Below, one piece after another: positions 55,589 to 61,038 of a DNA stretch of 64,000 bases. The stretch comes from Microlunatus flavus (GTDB taxonomy: Bacteria > Actinomycetota > Actinomycetes > Propionibacteriales > Propionibacteriaceae), in contig NZ_FOFA01000011.1 of NCBI RefSeq assembly GCF_900110855.1, forward strand, positions 6,172 to 70,171, read 5' to 3'. Position numbers and translations under genes: made by a program. The first letter of the stretch is position 1. Each line of letters begins with the position of its first letter. The notes beneath the pieces were generated by a model that worked only from the letters and a program-made list of their open reading frames with translations, was not told the DNA's origin and searched no databases.

Positions 55589-55665
55589 GCCGAGGTCTCG
55601 CGCGTCGTGCCCCGCCGAGGGACACCACGGGCGGGAAGCTCGGGCACCCTGTCAGCGCCATCCTC

Positions 55666-55671
55666 TAGCGT
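55666..55671 (+). promoter_or_regulatory. -10 box (TAGCGT) for the winged-helix gene
   Basis: TAGCGT ends 7 bases before the GTG at 55679. Confidence 0.5.
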
Positions 55672-55678
55672 TCCGACC

Positions 55679-56878
55679 GTGCGGGCGATCGGGGTCGAGC
55701 AACGTCGCGCGCGCCTCGCGCGGCGCCACCTGCTGCTGCCCGGGACGCGGACCGACGACGTCGCGGCGCTCGCCGACGCCCTGGTCGCGCTGCACTCGTC
55801 CGACCCGGTGACCGTCTACCTCTCGGCCCTGGCCCGGATGGCCCACCCCTGTCTGGCCGCCGTCGACGCCGCGCTCTACGAGCAACGTTCCGTGGTGCGC
55901 CACCACGCCGTACGCCGCACGCTCTGGGTCGCCACGCCGGAGGTCGTCCGCGAGCTGCACGGGGCCGCGACCCTGGCCCTCGTCACGCCGGAGCGGCGCC
56001 GCACCGCCGGCTACCTCGCCGTGAGCGGGGTGGAGAGACCGGAGGCGTGGCTCGGCGCGGCGGCGGAGCAGGTGGTCGCCGACCTGCGGGCGCACGGGCC
56101 GAGCACCGCGCGCGAGCTGGGCGAACGCATCCCGGCGCTGCGCCAGCCGATCGTCGTCGGCGGCCCGCGGTGGGGGGCCACCCAGTCCGCGCACACGCGG
56201 GTGCTGCTGGGCCTCGGCTTCGCCGGCGTGCTGCTGCGCACCCGGCCCGTGGGCAGCTGGGTGAGCGGCGCGTACCGCTACGCCCTCGCGGAGGACTGGC
56301 TGCCGGGCGGGCTCGGCGACCTCGACCCGCGGACGGCGCGGGCGGCTCTGGCCCGTCGCCACCTGGAACGCTTCGGCCCCGTCAGCACCGACGACCTGCG
56401 CTGGTGGACGGGCTGGACGGCGGCGGCGACGAGGGCGGCCCTCGCGGACGTCGGGGCGCAGGAGGTCGCGCTCGCCACCGGTCCGGCCTGGATGGCCGCC
56501 GGCGACGTGGCGGAGGTCGAGGACCCCGGTCCCTGGGTCGCGGCGCTGCCGAGCCTGGACCCCACGACCATGGGGTGGAAGGAGCGCGCCTGGTACCTCC
56601 CGCAGAGCGCGGAGCAGGCGTTCGACACGAACGGCAACGCCGGGCCGACCCTCTGGGTGGACGGACGGGTGGTCGGCGCCTGGGCGCAGGCGCCGGACGG
56701 CCGGATGCTCACCCACTGGTTCGAGGCGGTCCCCGCGGCGCGGCGGGCCGAGCTCGACGACCGGCTCGCCGTGCTCGCGGCGGCCGTCGGGGAGACGCGC
56801 TACAGCGTCCGGTTCCCCGGCCGCGAGCACCCGCGGATCCTCGCCGGCCGGGCGGAGGGTGCGGACCAGGACGGCTAG
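55679..56878 (+). CDS. Winged-helix DNA-binding (YcaQ/AlkZ-like) family protein
   Basis: A 399-residue protein of the winged-helix DNA-binding domain family (HTH_42), which includes AlkX/AlkZ DNA glycosylases. Typical are ARRHLLLPGTRTDDVAALADALVALHSSDP, RRTLWVATPEV, LARRHLERFGPVSTDDLRWWTGW and the C-terminal DRLAVLAAAVGETRYSVRFPG. The QxQ motif of AlkZ glycosylases is not evident, so glycosylase activity is uncertain. The GTG at 55679 (VRAIGVEQRRARLARR) fits the TAGCGT box. Confidence 0.85.
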   Translation: MRAIGVEQRRARLARRHLLLPGTRTDDVAALADALVALHSSDPVTVYLSALARMAHPCLAAVDAALYEQRSVVRHHAVRRTLWVATPEVVRELHGAATLALVTPERRRTAGYLAVSGVERPEAWLGAAAEQVVADLRAHGPSTARELGERIPALRQPIVVGGPRWGATQSAHTRVLLGLGFAGVLLRTRPVGSWVSGAYRYALAEDWLPGGLGDLDPRTARAALARRHLERFGPVSTDDLRWWTGWTAAATRAALADVGAQEVALATGPAWMAAGDVAEVEDPGPWVAALPSLDPTTMGWKERAWYLPQSAEQAFDTNGNAGPTLWVDGRVVGAWAQAPDGRMLTHWFEAVPAARRAELDDRLAVLAAAVGETRYSVRFPGREHPRILAGRAEGADQDG

Positions 56879-57321
56879 CGGCGCGCGCCGTGCCCGACGC
56901 GGCGCAGCAGGGCGCGCAGCTGGGCCGCCTCGGCGTCGTCGAGGTCGGCGAGGAGCGCGCGCTCGGCGTCGTCGCTGGCGCGCGTCGCCTCCCGCAGCGC
57001 CACCTGACCGGCGGGGGTGAGCTCCACGACGTTGCGCCGCCGGTCGACGGGGTCGGGGCGCCGCGCGACGAAGCCCTTGGCCTCGAGGCCGTCCAGCAGC
57101 CCGACCATCGAGGTGCGGTCCACCCCCAGCCGTGCGGCGGCCTGCTGCTGGGACTCCGGCTCGTGGCCGCCGAGGAGCAGCAGGACGGCGAGCTCGCGCG
57201 CTCCGAGACCCGCCGGCGCCAGGTGCTCGGCGTGCAGGTCCTCCAGCTCGAGCAGGGCCCGCTTGAGGAGGTAGGTCAGCCGGCCGACCAGCTCCGGTCC
57301 CAGGTCCGCCTCGTTCACCAC
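56875..57321 (-). CDS. MarR-family transcriptional repressor
   Basis: A 148-residue dimeric winged-helix regulator. The recognition part is QQAAARLGVDRTSMVGLLDGLEAKGFVARRPDPVDRRRNVVELT, with the DxRxR wing (VDRRRNV). It is divergent from an epimerase gene, and the 61-base gap holds two dyads that are good operators. GTG at 57321 is 6 bases after a minus-strand TAACCT. It should repress itself and the epimerase. The 3' end overlaps the winged-helix gene's stop by 4 bases on the other strand. Confidence 0.92.
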   Translation of the reverse strand: MVNEADLGPELVGRLTYLLKRALLELEDLHAEHLAPAGLGARELAVLLLLGGHEPESQQQAAARLGVDRTSMVGLLDGLEAKGFVARRPDPVDRRRNVVELTPAGQVALREATRASDDAERALLADLDDAEAAQLRALLRRVGHGARR

Positions 57322-57327
57322 ATCGCC

Positions 57328-57333
57328 AGGTTA
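57328..57333 (-). promoter_or_regulatory. -10 box (TAACCT) for the MarR gene
   Basis: Minus-strand TAACCT ends 6 bases before the GTG at 57321; the operator dyads lie directly upstream, where the -35 region would be. Confidence 0.45.
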
Positions 57334-57341
57334 CTGCTACT

Positions 57342-57370
57342 CTGATGATCAGTCCTACTGACGATCAGTA
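57342..57370. promoter_or_regulatory. Tandem MarR operator dyads
   Basis: CTGATGATCAG (57342-57352) and TACTGACGATCAGTA (57356-57370, perfect 6-base arms) share the CTGA-n-n-n-TCAG plan, 16 bases apart. The region is notably AT-richer than its surroundings. Both flanking genes start within 25 bases. Confidence 0.65.
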
Positions 57371-57382
57371 AAGGGGAACATC

Positions 57383-58201
57383 ATGTCCACACTTCTGCTC
57401 ACGGGCGCCTCGGGCCTCGTCGGCGCCCGGCTGCTCCCGCGTCTCGTGGCGGCGGGCTTCGAGTGCCGCGCCCTCGTGCGGGGCGAGCACCCGCTGCCGC
57501 CCGAGGTGGTCGCCGTCCGCGGCGACCTCGCCGACCCCGACTCGCTGCGGGCGGCCGTCGAGGGCGTCGACCTGGTCGTGCACCTCGCGGCGCTCTTCCG
57601 CACCCAGGACGAGGCGGCCATCTGGCGGGCGAACCTCGACGGCACCCGGAACCTCCTGTCCGCGGTCGAGGCGTACGCGCCCCGGGCCCGCGTCGTGATG
57701 GCCAGCACCGGCAACGTGTACGACGCCGACGCCGCCCGGCCCGCCCTCGAGACGGACGCGTGCGCGCCGACCGCCGCGTACCCCGCGAGCAAGGTGGCGG
57801 CCGAGCGGCTGCTGCGCGAGAGCGGACTCACCTGGGCCGTCCTGCGGCTGCCGTTCGTCTACGGTGAGGGCGACGGGCACCTGGCGTCGCTGGCCGCCCT
57901 GGCGCCGCGCTTCGGGCTGCACCCGGCGCACACCTACTCCGTCGCGCACCACCGTGACGTCGCGGCGGCCGTGCTGCTGGCGGCCGAGGGCCGGATGGAC
58001 GGGCGCGTCGTGAACCTGACCGACGACGCGGCCGTGACCGTGTTCGAGCTGGCCCGCTACGGCGGCGTGCTGATCGAGGGTTCGGCGGAGCCCCTGGTGG
58101 ACCCCTGGTCGGGTCGGATGGACGGTTCGCTCATCCGCGAGCTCGGCTTCGTGCCGGTCGTGCCGACCGTCGCGGTCGCGGCCCGGGAGGGCAGCCTCTG
58201 A
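57383..58201 (+). CDS. NAD(P)-dependent epimerase/dehydratase (extended SDR)
   Basis: A 272-residue Rossmann protein. TLLLTGASGLVGARLLPRLV has the G-x-x-G-x-x-G loop; VVHLAALFRTQDEAAIWRANLDGTRNLL and MASTGNVYDAD give the catalytic Ser/Thr region; YPASKVAAERLLRE is the Tyr-x-x-x-Lys motif (Y-P-A-S-K). Substrate unknown. The ATG has AAAGGGGA upstream. Divergent from a MarR gene that probably represses it, a typical arrangement for stress or small-aromatic response. Confidence 0.91.
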   Translation: MSTLLLTGASGLVGARLLPRLVAAGFECRALVRGEHPLPPEVVAVRGDLADPDSLRAAVEGVDLVVHLAALFRTQDEAAIWRANLDGTRNLLSAVEAYAPRARVVMASTGNVYDADAARPALETDACAPTAAYPASKVAAERLLRESGLTWAVLRLPFVYGEGDGHLASLAALAPRFGLHPAHTYSVAHHRDVAAAVLLAAEGRMDGRVVNLTDDAAVTVFELARYGGVLIEGSAEPLVDPWSGRMDGSLIRELGFVPVVPTVAVAAREGSL

Positions 58202-58257
58202 CGGCGGGCAGGGCAGGAGTCGGGCGGGGGAGGACGAGCTCGCCCGCGAGGCCGGGC

Positions 58258-60018
58258 TCAGCCGTTAGGGTGCTTGTCCAGGTACGCGGCCATCCGGTCG
58301 GTCCGCAGGCCATCGCTCAGCTCGGCCATCTGCGCCGCGTCGACCGGCTCGACGGTCTCCCCGTCCTGCCGGACCGCCTTCTCGACGGGCACGGCGAGCA
58401 GCCGGATGTCGCTCGGGCCGAGCCGGAGCGACAGCGCGGTCGAGCGCAGCTCGGAGTCCGACAGCGAGCTGTCGACCTGGATCCGCTTGGCGGCGTTGCC
58501 GACGAACTGGGTGAACTGGCGCGGCCGGGCCAGCACCTCGGGGGACAGGCCCTTGGTGAGGATCGCCTTGAGCATGTCGCGCTGGTGCTCGGCCCGGTCC
58601 CGCTCGCTGGTGCTGCCCTGGCGGACGTAGGCCAGCGCCGACTCCCCGGACAGCGTGATCCGCCCGACCGGGTAGGTGAAGCCGTGGCTCTCGAACTTGC
58701 GCCGGTTGTCGACGGTGACCCCGCCGAGCTCCTCGGTCAGCCCCACGAACCCGGTGAAGTCGATCATCGCCACGTGGTCCACCGGCGTCGACGTCACGGC
58801 CTCGACCGCGCGGACGACCGGCGACACGTCGTCCTCGCCGTCGTACGTGCGCCCCAGGGTCGTCGTCCCGTCGCCGTCGGGCACCACCAGGTCGCGCGGG
58901 AACGAGATGACGTACGCCTGGTCGCGCGCCTGGGTGAGGTGCACGAGCATGATCGCGTCGTTGCGCTCCGGGTCGGACTTGTCGCCCGCGTCCTTGCCGA
59001 TGAGGAGGTAGTTGAGCGTGTCGACGGCCGCGGGGTCCTTGGGCGGCCGCTTCGTGTCGGGCGTCAGCTGGAGCCCACGGCTGATGTTCGCGGTCACGCT
59101 CCGGTCCACCTCGTAGAGGTAGACGCCGCTCGCCCCGAGGACGAGGGCGAGCACGGCGACGACCACCCCGACGGCGACGAGCAGGGTGGTACGACGGCGG
59201 CGGGTCGACGCGGGCAGCGGGGCGGTCGCCGCGAGCCGGTCGCGCAGCTCGGCCGCGGTCGGGCGCTCGGCGGGGTCCGTCGCCAGCGCGCCGAGCACGA
59301 CCCGCATCAGCGCGGGGCTCACGCCGGGCAGGGCGGCGACCGGCTCGTCGAACCGGGCCAGCAGCTCGGGCAGCGACAGGTCGTCGTCGACGGTGCCGTG
59401 CGGCGGGCTGCCGCCCAGCACCGCGTAGAGGGTCGCCCCCAGCTGGTAGACGTCGCCAGCCTCGCTGGCCCGCTCGCCGCGCAGCACCTCCGGCGGTGCG
59501 TAGGCCGGGGTGATGCCCTCGCCGCTGCTCGACTCGACGTGGCCGGCCAGGCCGAAGTCGGCGAGCCCGGCGTGGCCGTAGCGGTCGATGAGGATGTTCG
59601 CCGGCTTGACGTCGCGGTGCAGCATCCCCTGCGCGTGCGCCGCGGACAGCGCGTCGGCGATGCGGACGCCGACGGCACGGACCCGGTCCTCGTCCTGGCG
59701 GCCCTCCGGGCTCTGCCAACGCGTCAGCGAACCACCCGGGCAGAGGTCCATGACCAGGTAGGGGCGGCCGTCCTCGAGGATCCCGGCGTCGTGCACGGTG
59801 ACGATGCCGGCGTGCCCCGACAGGCCGCCCGCGGTCCGGGCCTCGGAGAGGAAGCGGTCGCGCTCGGTCTCGGTGTCGAGGGTGCGGGCGTCGACCTTGA
59901 CCGCGACGAGGCGGTCCAGCGACTCCTGGCGGGCCTGCCAGACCGTGGCGAAGCCGCCCCGGGCCAGCGGCCGCCAGCCGCTCATGCCGGGGATGTCCGG
60001 AGCGGTGAGGACGGCCAT
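58258..60018 (-). CDS. Fusion protein: Ser/Thr protein kinase - membrane helix - LytR-CpsA-Psr (LCP) domain
   Basis: A 586-residue protein. Residues 12-262 are a complete Hanks-type kinase: glycine loop LARGGFATVW, Lys41 in VAVKV, HRDVKPAN at 134-141, DFG at 154-156, APPE near 174-177. RRRR (273-276) precedes one membrane helix at about 279-301. Residues 334-490 are an LCP domain: LNYLLIGKDAGDKSDPERND, ISFPRDLVVP (PRD at 374-376), VDHVAMIDFTGFVGLTEELGGV and ALAYVRQGSTSERDRAEHQRD. LCP enzymes attach glycopolymers to peptidoglycan; here a cytoplasmic kinase is joined to that extracellular domain. The usual R-R-Q ends of the last LCP motif are partly changed (RAEHQR). ATG 60018; no other start fits. 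Confidence 0.9.
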   Translation of the reverse strand: MAVLTAPDIPGMSGWRPLARGGFATVWQARQESLDRLVAVKVDARTLDTETERDRFLSEARTAGGLSGHAGIVTVHDAGILEDGRPYLVMDLCPGGSLTRWQSPEGRQDEDRVRAVGVRIADALSAAHAQGMLHRDVKPANILIDRYGHAGLADFGLAGHVESSSGEGITPAYAPPEVLRGERASEAGDVYQLGATLYAVLGGSPPHGTVDDDLSLPELLARFDEPVAALPGVSPALMRVVLGALATDPAERPTAAELRDRLAATAPLPASTRRRRTTLLVAVGVVVAVLALVLGASGVYLYEVDRSVTANISRGLQLTPDTKRPPKDPAAVDTLNYLLIGKDAGDKSDPERNDAIMLVHLTQARDQAYVISFPRDLVVPDGDGTTTLGRTYDGEDDVSPVVRAVEAVTSTPVDHVAMIDFTGFVGLTEELGGVTVDNRRKFESHGFTYPVGRITLSGESALAYVRQGSTSERDRAEHQRDMLKAILTKGLSPEVLARPRQFTQFVGNAAKRIQVDSSLSDSELRSTALSLRLGPSDIRLLAVPVEKAVRQDGETVEPVDAAQMAELSDGLRTDRMAAYLDKHPNG

Positions 60019-60093
60019 CGCGTGACGATTGTGCCACCGCCGGGTGTCGGCGGGGCCCGTCCGCGGGAACCGGGACGACGGAAGGGGGTGGGC

Positions 60094-61038
60094 GTGGCCC
60101 AGGAGAGCGACCTGTTCCGCGTCCGGCTGCAGCCGCTCGTCCGGGCGCGGGTCGCGGCGCTCGGCCCGGCCGGCCAGGCGTGGGTGGACGCGCTGCCCGG
60201 GCTGCTCGCCGACCTGGCCGCGCGCTGGTCGCTCCGCCTCGGCCGTGGGCTCCCCGGCGGGTCCGCGTCCTACCTCGTCGCGGCCACGCGTGCCGGCGGC
60301 GGCGACGCGGTGCTCAAGGTCGCGCTGCCCGGGCCCGGCTTCGCCCGGGTCGCCGAGGCGCTGAGGGAGTCGGCCGGCCGGGGCCACGCGGCGGTCCTCG
60401 AGGTCGACGAGCCGGCAGGCGCGCTCCTGCTCGAGCGGCTCGGTCCCTCCCTGGACCGCTCCGGCCTCGGACCCGAGGAGCAGGTCGAGGTGCTCGCCCG
60501 CACGCTCGCCGTCGCCTGGCGACCGCCGGACCGTGCCCCGGCGGACAAGGCCGGGTCGCTGGCCGAGGGCGTCCGCGCCCGGCACGTGCAGCATCCGGGC
60601 GCCGCCGACGACGCCGTGGTCGACCGCGCCCTCGCCCACGCCGCGCAGCTCGCCGACCACGCGGGCACGGACCTGGTGCGCGTGCACGGCGACCCGCACC
60701 CGGGCAACCTCCTGCGGGTGCCCCGGACCCGGCCCGGGGCCGAGAGCGGCTGGTGCTTCGTCGACCCCGAACCCCTGGTGACCGACCGCGCGTACGACCT
60801 CGGCGTCGCCGTGCGCGACTTCTCGGGCGCGTTGCTCGCCGACCCGGGAACCGCCGCCGCCCGGCTCCGGTCCTGGTGCCGCGCGGTGGCCGCGCCGAGC
60901 GGCACCGACCCCGAGCGGGTCTGGGCCTGGGCCTACCTGGAGCGGGTGTCGACCGGGCTCTACGTCACCTCGTTCGGCGCGCCGCGCGTAGCCGGGCCGT
61001 TCCTGGCGTCGGCCGCGCTCCTGCTGCGAAACTCCTAG
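60094..61038 (+). CDS. APH / streptomycin 6-kinase-like phosphotransferase
   Basis: A 314-residue kinase of the aminoglycoside/hydroxyurea phosphotransferase group (streptomycin 6-kinase fold). The lysine strand is GDAVLKVALPGPG; EPAGALLLERLGPSL is typical of the group; the catalytic loop is RVHGDPHPGNLLRV and the metal Asp is in CFVDPEPLVTDRAYDLGV. The GTG at 60094 is 6 bases after GAAGGGGG; the GTG at 60088 overlaps that site. Real substrate unknown; resistance to streptomycin is not implied. Divergent from the kinase-LCP gene. Confidence 0.86.
   Translation: MAQESDLFRVRLQPLVRARVAALGPAGQAWVDALPGLLADLAARWSLRLGRGLPGGSASYLVAATRAGGGDAVLKVALPGPGFARVAEALRESAGRGHAAVLEVDEPAGALLLERLGPSLDRSGLGPEEQVEVLARTLAVAWRPPDRAPADKAGSLAEGVRARHVQHPGAADDAVVDRALAHAAQLADHAGTDLVRVHGDPHPGNLLRVPRTRPGAESGWCFVDPEPLVTDRAYDLGVAVRDFSGALLADPGTAAARLRSWCRAVAAPSGTDPERVWAWAYLERVSTGLYVTSFGAPRVAGPFLASAALLLRNS

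What the first reader, a model, noticed from the sequence alone, without database searches (positions are those of the whole stretch)
58258..60018. Protein kinase fused to an extracellular LCP (cell-wall polymer ligase) domain
One intact frame encodes a complete Hanks-type kinase (Lys41, HRD 134-136, DFG 154-156), a single basic-flanked membrane helix and a LytR-CpsA-Psr domain with its PRD motif. In characterised systems kinases such as PknB sense through PASTA or other outer domains, and LCP proteins have only a short cytoplasmic end. Joining both would let phosphorylation on the inside be tied to glycopolymer attachment on the outside, or let lipid-linked polymer outside switch the kinase. 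Similar fusions may be in databases, but I know of no functional study. The altered last LCP motif hints that the outer domain could be a sensor rather than an enzyme.
Basis: partly seen in the sequence, partly recalled or inferred. Interest (0 to 1): 0.82.

Follow-up and report, generated by a model that had tools for sequence, protein, structure and literature searches.

The report
Kinase with ligase-like outer domain
In one actinobacterium a signalling kinase inside the cell is joined through the membrane to an outer domain related to cell-wall polymer ligases that has lost some ligase residues but kept most of those that hold the lipid-linked precursor, so it may be a sensor for wall building.

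Summary
Confirmed: one intact frame, minus strand 60018→58258 (586 aa), encodes a complete Hanks-type Ser/Thr kinase, one membrane helix and a LytR-CpsA-Psr (LCP) domain. The join is just before the helix, as if a kinase domain had replaced the cytoplasmic tail of an LCP protein.

Both halves belong to families of the window's own genus, where they are separate genes (kinase about 60% identical, LCP about 45%). A full-length match was found only in this genome: 20 genomes of the genus, 198 of the family, samples of order and phylum. None of 37 long-frame LCP loci from class and phylum samples held a kinase.

The halves evolved unequally. The kinase keeps 28 of 29 near-invariant columns. The LCP breaks 7 of 23; no other of 122 relatives breaks more than 2. 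Lost: the Arg equivalent to TagT R219 (needed for transfer) and the K-x-N loop. Kept: both Mg²⁺ Asp and most pyrophosphate-site Arg.

Best reading: a receptor kinase whose pseudo-ligase outer domain binds lipid-linked glycopolymer (about 0.5). Function is untested and no structure model could be made. It is a new architecture of known parts; the searches made found no paper on it.

The parts
58258..60018 (-). Whole gene: 586-aa kinase-membrane helix-LCP fusion
59245..59967 (-). Hanks-type Ser/Thr kinase domain (residues 18-258), with K41, HRD 134-136, DFG 154-156
   Evidence: Pfam PF00069 1.3e-39; 28 of 29 near-invariant columns kept
59119..59190 (-). Single membrane helix (residues 277-300) preceded by RRRR; aligns with the helix of separate LCP proteins, so the join lies just before it
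   Evidence: hydropathy; alignment
58552..58965 (-). LCP domain (Pfam match, residues 352-489)
   Evidence: PF03816 1.5e-25; solved LCP structures matched by sequence, best 1.3e-15
58990..58992 (-). D343, equivalent of the Mg-coordinating Asp (Cps2A D234 / TagT D82), kept; D354 (Cps2A D246) also kept
   Evidence: PMC7831098
58891..58899 (-). PRD motif, residues 374-376, kept (Arg equivalent to TagT R118, Cps2A R267)
   Evidence: numbering and the TagT sequence printed
58807..58890 (-). Degenerate loop after PRD (residues 377-404): IPG and K-I-N motifs lost; no Lys or Asn in residues 366-425
58582..58629 (-). Altered last motif YVRQGSTSERDRAEHQ (residues 464-479): second Arg of R-x-R is Gly468, conserved Asp is Glu472; R466, R475 and Q479 kept

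Best explanation
A membrane receptor kinase. Inside is a Hanks-type Ser/Thr kinase with its catalytic motifs intact; outside is an LCP domain that has become a pseudo-ligase. SHOWN by sequence: the fusion, the kinase motifs, the LCP homology, loss of the second Arg of R-x-R (G468, equivalent to TagT R219) and of the K-x-N loop, and retention of the Mg-binding Asp pair (D343, D354), of R352, R375, R466, R475 and Q479 and of nearly all conserved hydrophobic positions. INFERRED: the outer domain still binds a polyprenyl-pyrophosphate-linked glycopolymer (or a related lipid such as lipid II or free undecaprenyl-pyrophosphate) but does not pass it to peptidoglycan; occupancy changes dimerisation or placing of the kinase and so its activation-loop phosphorylation, telling the cell how much lipid-linked polymer is waiting outside. 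It would work like PknB sensing lipid II through PASTA domains, with a retired ligase as the ligand-binding part.
For: LCP half breaks 7 of 23 columns that are at least 98% conserved among the others, against at most 2 for any of 122 relatives; without the two columns whose register is unsure (396, 397) it is still 5. Kept: D343, D354, R375, R466, R475 (each the residue of 122 of 122 relatives), R352 and Q479 (119 of 122). Lost: R468 (R in 122 of 122), D472 to E (D in 122 of 122), K at 387 (111 of 122), N at 389 (121 of 122). TagT R118A, R219A and R227A each abolish transfer, while Cps2A/Wzg R267A still binds ligand (PMC11337229, passages). In S. aureus LcpA, R99, K135, N137 and D224 lie by proposed peptidoglycan sites (PMC7831098, passages); spacing from its PRD places K135 and N137 on the K-x-N motif lost here. 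Kinase half keeps 28 of 29 columns. Unequal rates: LCP end branch 1.33 against 0.04-0.59 in the 29 genus, family and own-paralogue rows of its neighbourhood; kinase 0.39 against 0.02-0.31 in nine genus rows. Eight of nine genus kinases carry a different outer domain at the same place. Governing of a kinase by lipid II is known (PMC6428115, passages; PMC6441080, passages).
Against: One gene in one genome; no orthologue, so no selection test was possible. The closest genome searched (ilvB 96% identical) lacks it. The split 'donor side kept, acceptor side lost' is not clean: the lost second Arg is also counted among pyrophosphate-binding Arg in S. dysgalactiae LytR (PMC11337229); Cps2A D371, equivalent to E472 here, stabilises phosphate-binding Arg; and S. 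aureus R99, by a proposed acceptor site, has by spacing its equivalent (R352) kept (PMC7831098). D to E is mild. TagT and Cps2A have T, not N, in the K-x-N place. At a 90% threshold the contrast is weaker: 8 of 35 columns, another LCP protein 7 of 36. Hydrophobic columns kept at 45 of 48 put it among the seven lowest of 123 rows. A long end branch also fits decay or a sparsely sampled lineage, and a few other rows have one (2.41, 1.19, 1.0). No structure model could be made. Nothing here shows ligand binding, kinase activity or expression.
Confidence: 0.5

Rival explanations
1. Bifunctional enzyme: the LCP half is still a working ligase or pyrophosphatase with unusual acceptor or chemistry, and the attached kinase regulates it or is placed by it.
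For: Both Mg-binding Asp and most phosphate-site residues are kept; in A. oris LcpA one of three conserved Arg (R128, by its order probably the equivalent of R352) is dispensable, so not every Arg matters (PMC6381275, passages).
Against: G468 stands where TagT R219 is, and R219A abolishes transfer (PMC11337229, passages); the K-x-N loop is gone. The genome holds four other LCP domains, at least one (C16:879826) with the usual motifs, so the job is covered.
Confidence: 0.2
2. Placement module: the LCP half binds lipid-linked polymer or nascent wall only to hold the kinase at growth sites, without switching it.
For: For PknB of M. tuberculosis, ligand binding was proposed to direct placement together with tightly controlled activation (PMC6428115, abstract and passages).
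Against: None from sequence: it cannot be told from the best explanation that way.
Confidence: 0.13
3. Chance chimera whose LCP half is decaying and which has no selected function as a whole.
For: Found in a single genome; absent from the closest genome searched and from the same gene neighbourhood in four relatives; long LCP branch.
Against: The halves are old (kinase 57-65% to genus kinases, which are at lowest 62% to each other; LCP 41-47%), yet the frame is open over 586 codons, kinase motifs stand, 16 of 23 near-invariant LCP columns and 45 of 48 hydrophobic ones remain, and the seven broken columns lie in two stretches, 381-404 and 468-472. The fusion event itself could be younger than the halves.
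Confidence: 0.14
4. Assembly or sequencing error that joined two genes.
For: The assembly is in 26 contigs.
Against: Neither half has a near-identical separate copy in the genome (best 60% and 45%); coding signature is similar in both halves; the gene lies well inside its contig (64432-66189 of 122757 bases).
Confidence: 0.02

Closest known systems
PASTA-domain Ser/Thr kinases (PknB, StkP, PrkC)
   Same: Kinase inside, one helix, ligand-binding outer part; the best solved-structure match of the whole protein is the PknB kinase domain (5u94, 5.1e-28); PknB is governed by lipid II (PMC6428115)
   Different: No PASTA match in Pfam; the outer part is an LCP domain; NCBIfam PASTA-kinase model far under its cut-off (160.8 against 450 bits)
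LCP glycopolymer transferases (TagT/TagU/TagV, Cps2A, LcpA)
   Same: LCP domain by sequence, N-terminal helix, Mg-binding Asp pair, PRD and most Arg residues
   Different: Cytoplasmic tail replaced by a kinase; second Arg of R-x-R and the K-x-N loop lost
The genus's own kinase family (own-genome paralogue at C16:622540, L002)
   Same: Kinase domain about 60% identical and in one supported clade (100/99)
   Different: 8 of 9 genus members run on into a helix and a Cys-containing outer domain (the ninth is cut by its contig end); the fusion has an LCP domain there
Eubacterium siraeum LCP protein, PDB 4OBM
   Same: A described LCP protein with missing active-site residues (PMC11337229, passages)
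   Different: There all four conserved Arg and one Asp are replaced; here one invariant Arg is replaced and both Asp stand. The passage names no kinase

Membership tests
Hanks-type Ser/Thr protein kinase | Profile match over curated cut-off | tested here: met
   PF00069, 136.6 bits against 31.7
Hanks-type Ser/Thr protein kinase | Catalytic Lys, alpha-C Glu, HRD, DFG, APE-like motif | tested here: met
   K41, E59, HRD 134-136, DFG 154-156, APPE from 174 (motif names recalled)
Hanks-type Ser/Thr protein kinase | Autophosphorylation | not testable with these tools
   needs protein
LCP domain (homology) | Profile match over curated cut-off | tested here: met
   PF03816, 90.5 bits against 24.6; solved LCP chains matched directly
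LCP domain (homology) | Alpha-beta-alpha LCP fold | tested here: inconclusive
   Only by sequence match and 45 of 48 conserved hydrophobic columns; structure prediction failed and was then switched off
LCP glycopolymer transferase (active enzyme) | Two Mg-coordinating Asp | tested here: met
   D343, D354
LCP glycopolymer transferase (active enzyme) | Arg of PRD, first Arg of R-x-R, later Arg and Gln | tested here: met
   R375, R466, R475, Q479
LCP glycopolymer transferase (active enzyme) | Second Arg of R-x-R (TagT R219, essential for transfer) | tested here: not met
   G468; R in 122 of 122 relatives
LCP glycopolymer transferase (active enzyme) | K-x-N (or K-x-T) loop by the proposed peptidoglycan site | tested here: not met
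   No Lys or Asn in residues 366-425
LCP glycopolymer transferase (active enzyme) | Transferase or pyrophosphatase activity | not testable with these tools
   needs protein
PASTA kinase | PASTA repeats outside | tested here: not met
   No PASTA match in Pfam at E up to 0.001
Genus kinase family with Cys-containing outer domain | Kinase domain in that clade | tested here: met
   100/99 support
Genus kinase family with Cys-containing outer domain | The Cys-containing outer domain | tested here: not met
   An LCP domain is there instead

The most novel reading that the evidence does not exclude
A wall-polymer ligase domain was turned into the ligand-binding part of a receptor kinase: a pseudo-LCP that reads the pool of lipid-pyrophosphate-linked glycopolymer outside the membrane and reports it by Ser/Thr phosphorylation inside, a second chemical class of wall precursor sensed by a bacterial kinase besides lipid II and muropeptides.
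Probability: 0.35. Interest if true: 0.78.

Novelty: new variant of a known kind. Interest (0 to 1): 0.6.

Why it matters
How bacteria match wall-polymer attachment to growth is an open question. If the outer domain binds lipid-linked polymer, this is a single-protein link between that pool and kinase signalling, and a natural experiment in turning an enzyme into a receptor. It also suggests a general test: LCP domains without the second Arg of R-x-R may be sensors elsewhere.

Tried and rejected
A mixed alignment of kinase-only and LCP-only rows (A1) put LCP rows on the kinase and was discarded; A3 and A4 were better, but no model was made from them.

A frameshift as cause of the altered motifs was rejected: the other two frames do not hold them. 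A hidden second fusion was sought by fetching LCP loci with open frames of 550 codons or more: all 26 such rows of the listing apart from the window's own (25, one), 5 shorter ones and all 11 of the listing. None held a kinase by a profile built from 30 sequences of this kinase family and its relatives; a very different kinase could be missed. In one of them (L145) the first 204 or so codons of the frame lie outside the fetched stretch. The searches scored only the best few candidates per genome (3, 6, all), and frames cut by contig ends would look short.

One search repeats it in the right frame (60094-61038).

Paper searches for the fusion: searches gave no paper; three unrelated ones; one search gave 33 papers, of which the 25 listed show no such fusion in title or abstract start (8 not seen); (Lcp1 with PknB) gave 4, not opened. 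The LCP review PMC7831098 has no occurrence of 'kinase' or 'fusion' in its main text. Most subscription papers and all preprints were out of reach.

Full report
What is there. Window 60018→58258 on the minus strand is one open frame of 586 codons from an ATG. The frame is open a further 353 codons upstream, but similarity to the paralogous kinase begins at residue 3 of both proteins as given, so the ATG at 60018 is the likely start. Pfam gives a protein kinase at 18-258 and LytR_cpsA_psr at 352-489, both over cut-off. A hydrophobic helix at about 277-300 follows RRRR. With the kinase inside, the LCP domain is outside, the topology of both parent families (inference from family knowledge). The LCP half alone matches solved LCP structures by sequence (TagU, Cps2A, TagT; best 1.3e-15).

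Where the parts come from. In the window's own genome the nearest kinase is C16:622540 (60% identity over residues 3-273) and the nearest LCP is C16:879388 (45% over 225-585). The alignment with LCP proteins includes the membrane helix, so the join lies just before it. The kinase half falls in a supported clade (100/99) of ten rows: itself, the own-genome paralogue and eight others of the genus. The LCP half falls among LCP proteins of the genus and family (93/93), though its long branch makes its place unsure. Of the nine other genus kinases, eight continue into a helix and a Cys-containing outer domain; the ninth is cut by its contig end. So the gene is an outer-domain swap built from two families that the genus keeps as separate genes. 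The genus is probably Microlunatus: the exact size of one genus member, 5,683,123 bases (locus listing), fits my recollection of M. phosphovorus NM-1, and a paper gives 5.7 Mb (PMC3534718, passage). This naming is recall, not a tool result.

How rare it is. A full-length match was found only in the window's genome: 1 of 20 genomes of the genus, 1 of 198 of the family (400 were asked for), 1 of 391 of the order sample at E up to 1e-58 and 1 of 396 of the phylum sample at 1e-45. These sets overlap. With the LCP half, 394 genomes of the class and 336 of the phylum were searched. The 37 listed LCP loci with open frames of 550 codons or more, other than the window's, were fetched, and none showed a kinase. 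The scan of 84,980 species found 45 relatives, none covering both halves; it needs exact 8-residue seeds and may leave out very near genomes. Plasmids: 468 records with a match, none covering 80% of the query. Viral contigs: no relative. The own genome has five LCP domains, and in the fetched stretches only this one shares its frame with a kinase.

Gene neighbourhood. ilvD, then the phosphotransferase gene and ilvB-ilvN, are in the same order in G074, G114, G088 and G018, but the block MarR-epimerase-fusion (about 56875-60018) is missing from those stretches. MarR plus epimerase lie elsewhere in G074 and G114, without the fusion. G074 is the closest genome by ilvB (96%), and its only matches at E up to 1e-60 are the separate kinase and the separate LCP. 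The fusion was therefore gained by this lineage (perhaps from an unsampled relative) or lost by its sisters; the data do not decide.

The two halves evolved differently. Against nine genus kinases (the own paralogue included) the kinase half is 57-65% identical, while these are at lowest 62% to each other; against 18 genus LCP proteins (the own paralogue included) the LCP half is 41-47%, while these are at lowest 49% and at median 59%. The kinase half breaks 1 of 29 columns conserved in at least 95% of the other 29 rows; the worst other row breaks 4 of 31. The LCP half breaks 7 of 23 columns conserved in at least 98% of the other 122 rows; among those rows 107 break none, 12 break one and 3 break two. 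At 90% conservation the contrast is weaker: 8 of 35, with another protein at 7 of 36. The 122 rows are 30 of the genus and family, 61 from named genomes (by title mostly Micrococcaceae) and 31 of the class. Two of the seven columns (396, 397) depend on the register of a loop with gaps. In the tree the LCP half has an end branch of 1.33; the 29 genus, family and own-paralogue rows around it have 0.04-0.59, but three more distant rows have 2.41, 1.19 and 1.0.

What was lost and kept. Passages of PMC7831098 and PMC11337229, and section 24 of the former, were read. TagT D82 equals Cps2A D234; counting along the TagT sequence printed puts R118 on PRD, R217 and R219 on R-x-R, and R227 ten residues after R217. 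In the window protein these are D343, R375, R466, G468 and R475. R219A, like R118A and R227A, abolishes TagT transfer (PMC11337229). S. aureus LcpA R99, K135, N137 and D224 lie by proposed peptidoglycan sites (PMC7831098); by spacing from its D123, K135 and N137 are the K-x-N motif, and R99 is the equivalent of R352, which is kept here. In the window protein there is no Lys or Asn in residues 366-425, so K-x-N is absent in any register; TagT and Cps2A have T in place of N. Kept are D343, D354, R352, R375, R466, R475 and Q479, and 45 of 48 conserved hydrophobic columns, which is among the seven lowest of 123 rows. The pattern leans to 'donor-lipid side kept, transfer and acceptor side lost', but not cleanly: the second Arg is also counted among the pyrophosphate-binding Arg in LytR (PMC11337229), and Cps2A D371, E472 here, stabilises phosphate-binding Arg (PMC7831098).

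Mechanism. The most likely reading is a receptor kinase with a pseudo-ligase outer domain that still holds a lipid-pyrophosphate-linked glycan. The precedent for wall precursors governing a kinase is PknB. In M. tuberculosis lipid II binds its outer part, and loss of binding led to activation-loop hyperphosphorylation and misplacement rather than to an inactive kinase (PMC6428115, abstract and passages). In S. aureus PknB, reported to sense lipid II, lowers capsule synthesis, and LcpC joins capsule precursor to lipid II (PMC6441080, passages). Ligand binding, kinase activity and coupling in the window protein are inference, and the sign of the effect cannot be told.

Limits. No orthologue was found, so selection on the fusion cannot be measured. 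No structure model was obtained. The search for other fusions depends on similarity to this kinase and this LCP. Decay of the LCP half is not excluded, though the broken columns are grouped in two stretches while both Mg-binding Asp and most phosphate-site residues stand.

Noticed in passing
window 60094-61038 (+): Phosphotransferase of the APH(6)/hydroxyurea-kinase type (PF04655 3.7e-19; far under the NCBIfam cut-offs), starting 75 bases from the fusion's ATG on the opposite strand and kept near ilvB in G074, G114, G088 and G018 at 57-68% identity.
   Followed up: partly
window 56875-58201: A MarR regulator and a divergent sugar-epimerase-like gene form a pair that lies elsewhere in G074 and G114 (L134, L135), so this pair and the fusion sit at a rearranged site in the window genome.
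   Followed up: partly
L002, L010-L016: The genus kinases share a Cys-containing outer domain with motifs such as HVYQTF; no Pfam match to it in L002 or L015, and a weak under-cut-off Septum_form match in the related L090.
   Followed up: partly
window 55607-56878 (+): AlkZ-like DNA glycosylase gene (PF06224 2.5e-51); matched in the same stretch of G114, G088 and G018, with no match in the fetched stretch of G074.
   Followed up: no
window 58270-61038 (+): An open frame of 922 codons runs antisense to the whole fusion gene and on into the phosphotransferase gene; in DNA of 75% GC the part antisense to the fusion is most likely a shadow, and only the last third (60094-61038) looks like a gene.
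   Followed up: partly
L003 (G000:C16:877888-882036): The canonical LCP paralogue lies between an ABC-transporter ATPase-like frame and a permease-like frame (my reading of the translations), as one would expect of a polymer-export and attachment locus.
   Followed up: no
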